Made by a program: the position numbers and the translations under genes. DNA of 64,000 nt from Loxodes magnus (lineage: Eukaryota > Ciliophora > Karyorelictea > Loxodida > Loxodidae), in NCBI GenBank assembly GCA_946699065.1, contig CAMPDV010000126.1, forward strand, positions 310,001-374,000, read 5' to 3'. Under the pieces are notes generated by a model that was not told where the DNA came from, ran no database searches, and saw nothing but the letters and a program-made list of their open reading frames with translations. This document shows positions 51,150 to 58,672 of the stretch, piece by piece (within the stretch, counting starts at the first letter, position 1; each line of letters begins with the position of its first letter).

Positions 51150-51640
51150 TTCGAAGGTGAACAGCAAGGTCATCTTCATCAGAGGTTGGGGAAGTTAAGT
51201 ACCCATAATTGACTTTATGTCTTCCTCTGATTTGGTTTGGCCTCGAGACATAAGATTCTTAGACCTTCGGCACTGGCTTAGTTTAAATTTAATTTAATTC
51301 TGGAATGAAAAAGAAATAATATTGCGAGCTTCATCAGAGGTGAGGAATTTAAGTACTCATAATTGACACATGTCGTCCTCTGCTTTGGTGATGCAATGAG
51401 ACACAATCCTGCCATGTCCTTGGACCTCCAACAAGTAGATAAGATTACGAGTATTCTTAAATTATATCAGTATTGAACATTTTTATCAGTACTGAATAAT
51501 TATACCAGTATTGAACAAGGTTTATCAGTACCTGATAATTTTATCAGTAACAAACATTCTTGTCAGTATGAAACATTTTTTTTAAAGAGCTGCACACCAA
51601 TGAGAGTGCTACGCGCTCTATAATCAAATTTATTTATTTA
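51150..51640 (+). repeat. Left terminal inverted repeat (491 bp)
   Basis: Matches the reverse complement of 58188-58672 with scattered differences. From outside in: TTCGAAGGTGA end; two related ~110-160-bp modules, each opening CTTCATCAGAGGT and containing CCTCTG plus TTGG; a cluster of ATCAGTA-type repeats at 51461-51570; and a conserved inner stretch ending TAATCAAATTTATTTATTTA. Confidence 0.9.
51461..51570. repeat. Subterminal tandem ATCAGTAYTGA-type repeats, left
   Basis: At least six spaced copies of a unit close to TTATCAGTACTGAA with ~18-bp period (ATCAGTATTGAAC, ATCAGTACTGAAT, ACCAGTATTGAAC, ATCAGTACCTGAT, ATCAGTAACAAAC, GTCAGTATGAAAC). The mirror cluster lies at 58250-58365. Such subterminal arrays often bind a transposase or host protein; that is inference. 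Confidence 0.75.
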
Positions 51641-53638
51641 ATTCCTTTATTTATGTTTGATTTGTATCTTTATGCTATAATATTAAACTTAAATGGTTTT
51701 ATTATTAATTTGTTATATTTAAGCTAACTATAGAGAATGTATATATCAAGCAAGCTTTTTCTTATTTTTATTCTGCTTTATATGACTGGTATTTAGGGGT
51801 AAAATTTAATAGGATTAAGTTTATAAAATTAAAATTTAGTATCTAAAGAAGGATGAAATAATTATATAATAATCTATAATGCTTTACTAATAAAAGCTAT
51901 TGCTTAAAATTATATATCCTTTATTCTTTTTAATCTACAAAGCACAATAATATCTAATTTTATTATTAAATGTATTATGCTACTTTATGCAAACTTATAA
52001 GCTAATTTATAAGAATTTTATTTAATTAAAGTTAATACATTTTATATCAAATAACGAATAAAGTAGAAATAGTAATAGAGTATAACCTAGAAATGGATTT
52101 GGCTGAGGAAATTATTTTAGAAAGTTGGATACTAAAATTGTAAATATTTAAAGTGAAGTTTAAAACTAAAAAATTATCTTAAACCTTAGTTTTGATTTTG
52201 AATGATTTAATGCAATCAATATTAGCAATCCTTTGTATTCATCCATATAAATTATCAAAAAATAAGATTATATTCTTACATAATTCATTTGATAAACAGT
52301 TGAAAGTTCGTCAGTTCATATAGTTAAGAATTGAAAATCAAAAAGATGAAGAAAATAGAATTATGAGATGAAAATAAAACATACAGTTTTTTTAAAGTAG
52401 ATAAAGGAGATAAAACATATAAGATAAAATAAGGACATTTTAGAAGAGGTAGCTAATTATTTAGAACTTAAAGTATTTTAAAAGCATAATTATAAATAAA
52501 CAAAATATACTTACATGCTTTTTTATCTTAAATACAAGTATACAAATTTATTTTTATCAATTTATACATGAAAAGTTATTAAAGAAAACTAAAAGAAACT
52601 TAAATAATAAATATTTTGATTTAAACATGGTAGAAAAGTGATAATAGCCAAGATAATTAAATCAAGGCAAATACTTTTAAAAACATTCTAAATTTTGCTT
52701 AAATAATATTAAGTATAATTTTAAAATAATAGAGCAATTTTAAAACTTTAAAGAACATCACTATCTTTCTTTCAAAATCAATTTTAAATTAGTAAATCAA
52801 ACAATAATAAAATAAGCAAGTTGTGCTATGAATTTTATTTTATACTTCTGCTGAAATTAATTTATACAATTGAAGAATTAATTTATATTATAAATCAAAT
52901 TTCATAAGTATAAGCTCATTGAAGTTATAATTAAATCATTAAGAGTTTTAAAAATATATAAAATATTTACTATTAGTTAAGTAGGCTTTATAGAGATAGT
53001 TTCATTATGTGTATTAAATAATTTATCTAAATGGTTTAACTTTACTTTTTTACCTTAGTCTAGCTATATTAAAAAGATTGGCAGAGTAAATATTATTAAA
53101 TATTTTGCTTTGCAATTGTTGTGCTTTAACTAAGCATTCATAATTTTGATATTAGATTATTAAAAGTTCTAGGCAATATCTCATCAAGAAGAGAGTAGAT
53201 GTGGATTTTTAAATGGATATAGTAAAAGATAATGATATTGATATTCCAAAGACTTTTTAAAACTGAATAAAGTCTAAAAATATTTAAATTCCTAAAATTA
53301 AAAACATTGAATAATAATAAAATTTCTAGTTCAGTTCTGTTTAATAAATTTCTCAAAATCCTAGATTTTATAATAAGCTTAATGAAACATAAAAATTTAC
53401 AATTTGAACTCGAAGTAATTACTATCTTAACAAGTTTAAAGAGATATAAAATTAAATAACGAACTTTGAAATAATAATCCTGTTTAATTAATAACTTTGC
53501 ATAGTTATAAACTTAAGAGTGTTTTTATAAAGTAGACTTGGGATAATAATTCTACTAAACTAAACTTATTAAGATTTTTTAAATATGAAAGTCTACTATG
53601 ATTTGTATAAATCTACAGTAAAATTTGTAATTATAAAA
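51641..53638. other. AT-rich interior of the unit, left of the desaturase
   Basis: About 2 kb. A plus frame from an ATG at ~52093 is open for over 150 codons and a second frame near 52370-52480 reads YSFFKVDKGDKTYKIKQGHF, so a small gene with an intron may lie at 52090-52640, but I cannot define it. No RNA gene was recognised. Confidence 0.3.
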
Positions 53639-55117
53639 ATGAAAGTTGGTTAAGAAAATAATTAAAGCTATTCAGAAAGGAAAAATCATTTATAAATTCG
53701 TGGAAATGCAGAATCTACCAAGCCTAGCTTTAAATGAAATCTCTATAATTGTGTAGGATGTTATGGCTATGATAGACCGAGGAAGATTATTCAAAACAAA
53801 AATCAGAAATATTCGTGAGCTGAAATTATTAGACATGATCGTCCTGATGATTGCTGAGTAGTTATTCATGGAAAAGTTTATGATGTTACTGATTGGGTTG
53901 AAAAGCATCCTGGCGGGAATATGATCTACGAAGGAGCAGGTGGTGATTGCACTTCAATGTGGGAGAGCTATCATCCATATTGAATTTCTGAAGACAATAA
54001 GTTACTTCAAAACTATTATATCGGTGAAGTATTGGATTATTAGACTTTCTACAATTGAGATCTTAAGTTATATTCAAAGATTAAAAGAAACATAGAAAAA
54101 AATTTCTCATGAGCTGAAAGGAAATAGAGTATGGCTTTACATATTAAAGGCCTAGTTTTGTTTATTTCTTGAATATTCGCTTTTTATGCATACGTAGTAT
54201 ATGCAAATATATACTCAGTTATATTTTTAGCTCTAGTTGCAAGCTAAATCGCAATAAACATACTTCATGATGCAAACCATTTTGCCTTCTGCAATAATAA
54301 GTTCATGCTTAAAGTTTCCTCTAATTTGATGGACTTTCTAGGTGCTTCCAGCTAAATTTGAAGAAGAGCCCATAATGTATCTCATCATAGTAATGTTAAT
54401 TTTGTAGACATTGATAGAGGGCTTTCTACATTATATCCATATATAAGAATGCATAATATGCAAGATTGGGAATGGCATCATAAATATCAGCATATTTATA
54501 CATGGTTTCTCTATTTAATAGAACGCATTTTAGATGTCTGCAGCACGTATGATGAACTAGGTTTTATGGGAAACTTTCCGTGAAGAAAAGGCTACGTTAC
54601 TCCTAAAATGTTTATATATAGTGTCATAATGAAAATTCAATGGATAACAGCAACATTATTTATTCCTACTTATATCCATGGGCTAAGATTCTCCATTATC
54701 AACTGACTTGGCTATTTCGTGTTTACTAGCATATTCTTAGTTTACTTTAATGTTGTAAACCACTGAACATATGATGTTTAATTTTAAGAGTCAAAAACTA
54801 GTTCAGAAAAATCAAAAGACTGGGTAATCAGTTAAATTACAAATTCCACTAATTTTGCTACTGATTCATGGTTTTGAACAAATGCTTCTGGAGGCTTAAA
54901 TTATCAAATTGAGCATCATTTATTTCCATCTGTAGCACACACAAAACTTTATAAAATAACACCTATTGTCCTAGATCTTTGCAAGTAGTATGATATCCAA
55001 TATTTTAATTACAGCAGTTTCTGGTCAGCTGTTTATGGGCATTATCTCTTACTAAAAAAGATGGGTTAGAAAGAAGAAGTTTATGGTTATTCCAAGGAAT
55101 AAAATCTAGGATAATGA
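53639..55117 (+). CDS. Cytochrome b5-fused front-end (delta-5/6-type) fatty-acid desaturase
   Basis: 492 codons, ATG 53639 to TGA 55115-55117. The enzyme inserts a double bond between an existing one and the carboxyl end of polyunsaturated acyl chains in the ER membrane. Residues ~60-135 are cytochrome b5 with heme motif HPGGN (His90) and DRPDDCWVVIHGKVYDVTDW. Hydrophobic segments follow, with the three histidine boxes: HDANH (~210), HNVSHH (~250) and the front-end-specific QIEHH (~425, in GGLNYQIEHHLFPS). Twelve internal TGAs fall at Trp positions, for example in the b5 DCW and near the third box. The frame is intact. Position specificity (5 or 6) cannot be read. It lies within the TIR-bounded unit. 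Confidence 0.93.
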
Positions 55118-58083: not shown

Positions 58084-58187
58084 AAAAATATCCTCTTGAA
58101 CTAAAGGTAATCTTGGAACTTCAATAGTCCATCATCTTTTTTTATAATTTGCACTTATAAGTTAATCATGCTATATCTAAAAATTTA

Positions 58188-58672
58188 TAAATAAATAAAT
58201 TTGATTATAGAGCGCGTAGCACTCTCATTGGTGCGCAGCTCTTTAAAAAATGTTTCATACTGACAAGAATGTTTGTTACTGATAAAATTATCAGATACTG
58301 ATAAACCTTGTTCAATACTGGTATAATTATTCAGTACTGATAAAAATGTTCAATACTGATATAATTTTAGAATACTCGGAATCTTTAAGACTTGCTGGAG
58401 GTCCAAGGACATGGCAGGATTGTGTCTCATTGCATCACCAAAGCAGAGGACGACATGTGTCAATTATGAGTACTTAAATTCCTCACCTCTGATGAAGCTC
58501 GCAATATTATTTCTTTTTCATTCCAGAATTAAAAATTATAATAAGTCAGTGCCGAAGGTCAAATTAGCAGATGTCTCGAGGCCAAGCCAAAGCAGAGGAA
58601 GACATAAAGTCGATTATAGGTACTTAACTTCCCCAACCTCTGATGAAGATGACCTTGTTGCTCACCTTCGAA
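58188..58672 (-). repeat. Right terminal inverted repeat (485 bp)
   Basis: Reverse complement of 51150-51640 with small insertions/deletions and base changes. A 93-codon frame (58411-58692) across it is a by-product of the repeat and runs past its edge; I do not regard it as a gene. Confidence 0.9.
58250..58365. repeat. Subterminal tandem ATCAGTAYTGA-type repeats, right
   Basis: Mirror image of the 51461-51570 cluster with about six units of the same motif (TCAATACTGATA, TCAGTACTGATA and variants). Unit order is conserved between the two ends. Confidence 0.75.

What the first reader, a model, noticed from the sequence alone, without database searches (positions are those of the whole stretch)
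51150..58672. Fatty-acid desaturase inside a 7.5-kb unit with ~490-bp terminal inverted repeats
Long matching inverted repeats with structured interiors flank a full-length metabolic gene plus a CCHC protein and an unknown basic protein, with no recognised transposase. Either the unit is an unusual mobile element carrying a lipid-metabolism cargo gene, or two inverted repeat copies landed around ordinary genes. No described family known to me has this gene set.
Basis: partly seen in the sequence, partly recalled or inferred. Interest (0 to 1): 0.75.

Follow-up and report, generated by a model that had tools for sequence, protein, structure and literature searches.

The report
Inverted repeats around ciliate desaturase gene
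A pair of near-identical inverted repeats really does enclose an intact fat-desaturating enzyme gene in a ciliate genome, but the neighbouring zinc-knuckle gene sits in a separate retroelement-like insertion and nothing yet shows that the whole block moves as one element.

Summary
The inverted repeat is real: 51150-51640 and 58188-58672 agree at 462 of 492 aligned columns. The window is ciliate nuclear DNA read with the karyorelict code (TAA/TAG = Gln, TGA = Trp or stop). An intact cytochrome-b5 front-end desaturase (53639-55117) lies between the arms and groups with ciliate desaturases. The rest of the 'gene set' does not hold together. The CCHC gene lies in a separate 837-bp insertion with a 17-bp target-site duplication and an (ATT)n tail; it interrupts an older repeat whose uninterrupted relative lies outside the unit. 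The 'basic protein' is a weak ORF without detected relatives. Pfam found no transposase. The only candidate unit-level target-site duplication is an ambiguous palindrome, TTCGAA. A larger inverted repeat in the same window encloses ordinary genes. Best reading: an ordinary desaturase locus between two inverted copies of a dispersed repeat. A long-TIR transposon carrying the gene is not excluded; the genome search that would decide it did not complete (17 tries).

The parts
51150..51640 (+). left arm of the inverted repeat: two related ~63-bp modules (51174-51236, 51329-51389), tandem 19/38-bp sub-repeats (51460-51580); G+C 0.17 just outside, 0.39-0.41 in the outer 300 bp
58188..58672 (-). right arm of the inverted repeat, 462 of 492 aligned columns identical to the left arm; differences clustered in two patches
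51641..53638 (.). AT-rich stretch; no Pfam match; best-of-six-frames codon score -9.6 or lower in every 300-nt window 51601-53550
53639..55117 (+). intact cytochrome-b5 fused front-end fatty-acid desaturase, 492 aa, code 27, 12 in-frame TGA (Trp) before the TGA stop; HPGG, HDANH, HNVSHH and QIEHH motifs (box names recalled)
55122..56564 (.). older repeat (72.1% over 262 and 75.9% over 145 columns to an inverted relative within 63914-62915, outside the unit), interrupted by the nested insertion
55470..56306 (-). nested 837-bp insertion, retroelement-like, flanked by 17-bp direct repeats ATTATAAAGTATAATAA (55453-55469 and 56307-56323, the only two in the window); (ATT)n tail and a small GC hairpin at the 3' end of the ORF strand
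55527..56297 (-). ORF of the nested insertion, 256 aa plus TGA stop: coiled coil, CX2CX4HX4C zinc knuckle, basic C-terminus (ORF1/Gag-like by anatomy)
   Evidence: no homologue
57055..57507 (+). weak basic ORF, 150 aa, predicted as a long helix; no homologue found, no Pfam family above cut-off

Best explanation
This is an ordinary stretch of a karyorelict-type ciliate genome in which a normal, ciliate-type front-end desaturase gene lies between two inverted copies of a ~490-bp dispersed repeat. An 837-bp ORF1-only, LINE-like retroelement also inserted downstream of the desaturase, probably by target-primed reverse transcription, and brought the CCHC gene. The desaturase works as a host lipid enzyme; the arms are repeat copies, not the ends of a working mobile unit. 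Shown: arms, gene, nested insertion with target-site duplication and an uninterrupted relative, no Pfam transposase. Inferred: that the arm is a dispersed repeat, that the arms arrived independently of the genes between them, and that the nested element is LINE-derived.
For: In the tree the desaturase falls with a 20-row clade that holds the two named ciliates, Platyophrya and Paramecium (97/90 support; midpoint root; 17 of the 20 rows unnamed and one, GILK01, unidentified). The CCHC insertion has a 17-bp direct duplication; 1 of 3000 random pairs in the window reached 15 or more, and that one may be the insertion itself. The joined flanks of the insertion align 35 bp past the junction to an uninterrupted relative at 63830-63536, and a second collinear block follows. 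That interior repeat is 72-76% identical to its relative outside the unit, far more diverged than the arms (94%), so this interior was probably at this locus before the arms diverged. Another inverted repeat (3.5-kb arms, 98.8%) in the same window encloses a ubiquitin hydrolase and a Kelch gene. Host genes lie on both sides: cyclin on the left, Ras-family GTPase on the right. From the copy and family numbers printed for Loxodes magnus (PMC11441545, section read), 0.3-0.5 same-family inverted pairs within 7.6 kb are expected per 64 kb (rough, assumes equal family sizes and no demand for full-length copies).
Against: The two arms share the same outer and inner edges and face outward like TIRs. 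The outer edges coincide with a G+C step (0.17-0.18 outside, 0.39-0.41 inside), as at the end of a discrete element. The single arms have no clear target-site duplication of their own (right arm none of 4-12 bp; left arm TTATT and 4-base words in AT-rich DNA), which would be expected of recent independent insertions by most mechanisms. No other copy of the arm of 60 columns or more occurs in the window (other matches are 46 columns or shorter), so 'dispersed' is inferred. The arms hold iterated 19-bp subterminal motifs as some transposon ends do. The interior repeat may itself be multi-copy, which would weaken the dating argument, as would gene conversion between the arms.
Confidence: 0.55

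Rival explanations
1. A non-autonomous long-TIR DNA transposon that captured a complete desaturase gene (a Pack-TYPE-like element), mobilised by a transposase encoded elsewhere; the CCHC retroelement inserted into it later. The palindromic TTCGAA is either the tip of the TIR or a 6-bp target-site duplication.
For: Outward-facing arms with identical outer and inner edges; TTCGAAGGTGA only at the two tips; G+C step at both outer edges; subterminal tandem repeats; no clear target-site duplication for the single arms; TTCGAA at both ends, one of only 19 places in 64 kb each.
Against: No Pfam transposase in six frames; the authors of the Loxodes magnus genome report no compelling DNA transposons (PMC11441545, sections read; they note two domesticated-looking ISX02-like proteins), if this is that organism; the interior has an older relative just outside the unit; arm differences are clustered (38 of 51 and 44 of 50 columns identical in two patches, 100% in three others), not an even decay of one pair.
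Confidence: 0.27
2. A local inverted duplication (template switching or fold-back repair) copied the 490-bp segment 6.5 kb away in inverted orientation, the same process that made the 3.5-kb inverted repeat at 16.5-30.5 kb and the older pair 55.1-56.6/62.9-63.9 kb.
For: The three long duplications found in the window (self-BLAST at E <= 1e-3, plus tandem modules inside the arms) are all inverted, with inner spacers of 6950, 6547 and 6350 bp; no unambiguous target-site duplication at the 490-bp arms.
Against: Only three pairs; the outer arm edges coincide with a sharp G+C step, which suits a discrete repeat better than a random segment; the arms have internal modules and sub-repeats.
Confidence: 0.14
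3. The inverted arms are boundary signals of a segment deleted during nuclear development (an IES-like segment), as flanking inverted repeats set deletion boundaries in Tetrahymena.
For: Flanking inverted repeats set deletion boundaries in Tetrahymena (PMC6547420, abstract and passages seen).
Against: The segment carries an intact, conserved enzyme gene; no canonical IESs were found in Loxodes magnus (PMC11441545, abstract seen), if this is that organism.
Confidence: 0.04

Closest known systems
Pack-MULE / Pack-TIR non-autonomous transposons (plants, metazoans)
   Same: Long inverted arms around a cellular gene, no transposase of its own
   Different: No defined target-site duplication, no parent transposase, no second copy shown; family known here only from a search listing and recall
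Tlr elements of Tetrahymena (long inverted repeats with 19-mer tandem repeats: recalled; the 1994 source paper was seen only as a reference-list entry)
   Same: Ciliate, long inverted repeats with ~19-bp tandem sub-repeats
   Different: Tlr/Maverick-like elements are larger and encode virus-like genes (recalled); no such Pfam domain here
BogoMITE / Bogo (Blepharisma; PMC9942856, passages)
   Same: Ciliate TIR elements with many non-autonomous copies
   Different: Their TIR is ~30 bp and C-rich with TSD TAA/TTA; here ~490-bp arms with TTCGAA tips
Half-LINE (HAL1-like) ORF1-only retroelements (recalled; one paper listed, not read)
   Same: For the nested insertion only: ORF1-like protein with coiled coil and zinc knuckle, target-site duplication, simple-repeat tail
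   Different: No reverse transcriptase in it; a partner elsewhere was not sought successfully; no sequence homologue
Ciliate cytochrome-b5 front-end desaturases (Platyophrya P0015, Paramecium pentaurelia P0017)
   Same: Same two Pfam domains, 43% and 41% identity over 87% and 88% of the query
   Different: Long separate branch, code 27

Membership tests
TIR DNA transposon (class II) | terminal inverted repeats at both ends | tested here: met
   491- and 485-bp arms, 462 of 492 columns identical
TIR DNA transposon (class II) | short direct target-site duplication outside the TIRs | tested here: inconclusive
   only TTCGAA and words inside it, which is its own reverse complement and so cannot be told from the TIR tip
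TIR DNA transposon (class II) | encodes a transposase, or shares ends with an element that does | tested here: inconclusive
   no Pfam transposase in six frames of 50400-59401; ends shared with an autonomous element could not be tested (genome search did not complete)
TIR DNA transposon (class II) | multiple copies of the whole unit at different loci, empty sites | not tested
   genome search unanswered in 17 tries (last); no second copy in the window
Pack-TYPE transposon | captured host sequence with a parental copy elsewhere | not tested
   needs the genome; same reason
Non-LTR retroelement insertion (nested CCHC unit) | target-site duplication of variable length and sequence | tested here: met
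   17 bp; 1 of 3000 control pairs reached 15 or more, possibly the insertion itself
Non-LTR retroelement insertion (nested CCHC unit) | A-rich or simple-repeat 3' tail | tested here: met
   (ATT)n at the 3' end of the ORF strand
Non-LTR retroelement insertion (nested CCHC unit) | reverse transcriptase of its own (autonomous LINE) | tested here: not met
   none by Pfam in the 837-bp insertion; a partner in trans was not tested. Hence called retroelement-like and non-autonomous, not filed as an autonomous LINE
Front-end fatty-acid desaturase | N-terminal cyt b5 plus FA_desaturase domain with histidine boxes | tested here: met
   Pfam PF00173 and PF00487; boxes read

The most novel reading that the evidence does not exclude
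A long-TIR, non-autonomous DNA transposon carries an intact lipid-desaturase gene as cargo in a karyorelict ciliate, a lineage in which no compelling DNA transposon has been reported, with palindromic TTCGAA as its target and duplication; the block is itself host to an ORF1-only retroelement.
Probability: 0.22. Interest if true: 0.62.

Novelty: new member of a known kind. Interest (0 to 1): 0.22.

Why it matters
If the ordinary reading holds, the locus is an example of layered repeats around a host gene in a repeat-rich ciliate and shows how independent insertions can look like one 'element'. If the transposon reading held, it would put a gene-carrying TIR element into a ciliate (Loxodes) whose genome paper reports no compelling DNA transposons and no extensive DNA elimination, and would bear on how such elements persist without developmental excision.

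Tried and rejected
Bacterial and standard codes: no ORF of 100 aa in table 11 within 45000-64000, none of 150 aa in table 1 in the window. Table 6 gave 76 mostly overlapping ORFs. Table 27 fits: TGA is the first in-frame TGA after the conserved parts of EF-1-alpha, the bromodomain gene, the desaturase and the Ras gene, and is also read as Trp inside genes.

Viral or prokaryotic origin: two arm patterns (34 and 22 nt) had 0 exact matches in viral contigs, one degenerate arm pattern 0 in genome contigs, and the arm 0 in phages; these collections may leave out the window's own genome. Horizontal origin of the desaturase: no sign of it on the tree (68 of the 72 hits P0008-P0079, those of 420 aa or more, out of 120 listed and 1332 found). 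The query has a long branch, so its exact place is unsure.

Hidden transposase: none by Pfam in six frames. The basic ORF has no relative at E <= 10 among 17 candidates and is predicted as a long helix (mean pLDDT 72.6, pTM 0.32, single sequence without its first Met). The CCHC protein has no relative at E <= 10 among 229 candidates and a poor model (pLDDT 59.8). No fold search was run.

Arms longer than 490 bp: outer and inner flanks are not clearly more alike than shuffles (for 60 bp, 84 of 500 and 166 of 500 shuffles as good). Arm as structured RNA: z-scores -1.15 and -0.13, left arm only. My home-made gene finder is too strict: it missed the ubiquitin hydrolase and Kelch genes that Pfam found. 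The sliding codon score is also a weak judge: in the true desaturase frame it runs from about +9 to -6, and in two desaturase windows a wrong strand scored higher.
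Full report
The window is nuclear DNA of a ciliate that uses the karyorelict code. No ORF of 100 aa is open in the bacterial code around the unit. Read with table 27, familiar genes appear: EF-1-alpha, a GNAT/bromodomain protein, ubiquitin and a tubulin-tyrosine-ligase-like protein (my recognition from the translations), and by Pfam a cyclin, a Ras-family GTPase, a ubiquitin hydrolase and a Kelch protein. The first in-frame TGA after the conserved part ends four of these genes plausibly, and TGA also stands for tryptophan inside genes; TAA and TAG are glutamine. This fits Loxodes, whose published description (PMC11441545; abstract, start of the text and outline, sections 8, 9, 10, 11 and 16) gives the same code. 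The species is my inference; no DNA match was made.

The inverted repeat is real. The arms 51150-51640 and 58188-58672 agree at 462 of 492 columns. Both end in TTCGAAGGTGA, found exactly nowhere else in the window. Each arm holds tandem 19/38-bp sub-repeats and two related ~63-bp modules. Differences are clustered: two 50-nt stretches have 38 of 51 and 44 of 50 identical columns, while three stretches (from 51300, 51350 and 51600) are identical. Twenty simulated windows gave no off-diagonal match at E <= 1e-5. The flanks beyond either edge are not clearly more alike than shuffles. G+C steps from 0.17-0.18 outside to 0.39-0.41 inside at both outer edges.

The desaturase at 53639-55117 is intact, with cytochrome b5 and desaturase domains, 12 in-frame TGA = Trp codons and a TGA stop. 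Its branch is long, so I claim only 'ciliate-type, no sign of horizontal gain'.

The CCHC gene does not belong to the unit by descent. It fills an 837-bp insertion (55470-56306) between the only two copies of the 17-mer ATTATAAAGTATAATAA in the window; 1 of 3000 random pairs in the window shows a shared word of 15 bp or more, perhaps the insertion itself. On the ORF's strand it ends in a small GC hairpin and an (ATT)n tail; the fold of that end is z = -2.0 against shuffles. With the insertion left out, the flanks align across the junction to 63830-63536, a relative without the insertion, and on to a second collinear block. This is the mark of a retroelement insertion. The protein has a predicted coiled coil (poor model) and a CX2CX4HX4C motif, as LINE ORF1 proteins can have (recalled); Pfam gives only sub-threshold matches. 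It has no relative at E <= 10 in the protein collection and no reverse transcriptase by Pfam, so it would be a half-LINE-like, non-autonomous element.

The interior also shares sequence with its surroundings. The stretch around the insertion (55122-56564) has an inverted relative outside the right arm, within 63914-62915 (72.1% over 262 and 75.9% over 145 columns). That divergence is far larger than the 6% between the arms. If the pair arose locally, the interior was here before the arms diverged and was not brought in by them. If it is a high-copy repeat, or if the arms are kept alike by gene conversion, the argument fails; neither could be tested.

Ends of a mobile unit: the only candidate duplication is TTCGAA, which is palindromic, so it can equally be the tip of both arms; it occurs 19 times in the window, and 2.7% of positions start a 6-bp palindrome. 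The single arms also lack convincing duplications, which speaks against recent independent insertion by a mechanism that duplicates its target. This, with the G+C step at the outer edges, is the strongest point for the transposon reading; the first of the two also suits a non-transposon inverted duplication.

A useful comparison lies in the same window: 16555-20051 and 27002-30498 are inverted, 98.8% identical, 6950 bp apart, and enclose a ubiquitin hydrolase and a Kelch-repeat gene; by eye, without a test, their edges show no terminal motif or duplication. Inverted repeats around ordinary genes are therefore not special here. With the published copy and family counts for L. magnus, about 0.3-0.5 same-family inverted pairs within 7.6 kb are expected per 64 kb. 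This assumes equal family sizes, that the organism is Loxodes, and no demand for two full-length copies; such a demand would lower it.

Verdict: two inverted repeat copies around an ordinary desaturase locus that was also hit by a retroelement (0.55); gene-carrying long-TIR transposon (0.27); local inverted duplication (0.14); developmental deletion boundary (0.04). The paper reports no compelling DNA transposons in L. magnus, which lowers the second reading but also makes it the more interesting if true. Literature searches for karyorelict with transposon and inverted repeat (5 papers, 4 listed) and for ciliate/transposon/desaturase/TIR (79 papers with at least 3 of 4 terms, 8 listed, none of the 8 holding the desaturase term) listed no such element by title; only listings were seen for these. 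The genome search that would settle the matter was asked 17 times and never answered.

Noticed in passing
window 16555-20051 and 27002-30498: 3.5-kb inverted arms, 43 mismatches in 3497 bp (22 of them in the innermost 250-bp bin), around a UCH/zf-UBP gene (+, about 22.7-24.0 kb) and a Kelch gene (-, about 25.7-26.2 kb).
   Followed up: partly
window 16555-30498, 51150-58672, 55122-63914: The three long duplications found in the window are all inverted, with similar inner spacers (6950, 6547, 6350 bp); possibly a local inverted-duplication habit of this genome, or chance with three pairs.
   Followed up: partly
window 51553-51638 (-) and 58190-58273 (+): The innermost part of each arm weakly matches C/D-box snoRNA family RF00537 over its full length (27.8 and 24.8 bits, gathering 50; E 0.018 and 0.095), starting 2 nt inside the arm edge; perhaps a snoRNA-derived head of the repeat, perhaps chance.
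   Followed up: partly
window 63057-63536: The outside copy of the older repeat carries ~410 bp more than the inside copy, coding-like on the minus strand, with a sub-threshold PF12248 match (E 0.00045, 20.4 bits against cut-off 24.2).
   Followed up: partly
window 60368-60844 (-) and about 61761-62045 (-): A Ras-family GTPase gene and beside it a partial, apparently frame-broken second Ras-like copy.
   Followed up: no
window 49400-50860 (-): Cysteine-rich, zinc-finger-like ORFs left of the unit with a sub-threshold zf-RAG1 match near 50.4-50.5 kb (E 0.039 and 0.023, 14.4 and 15.2 bits against cut-off 22); not evidence of RAG.
   Followed up: no
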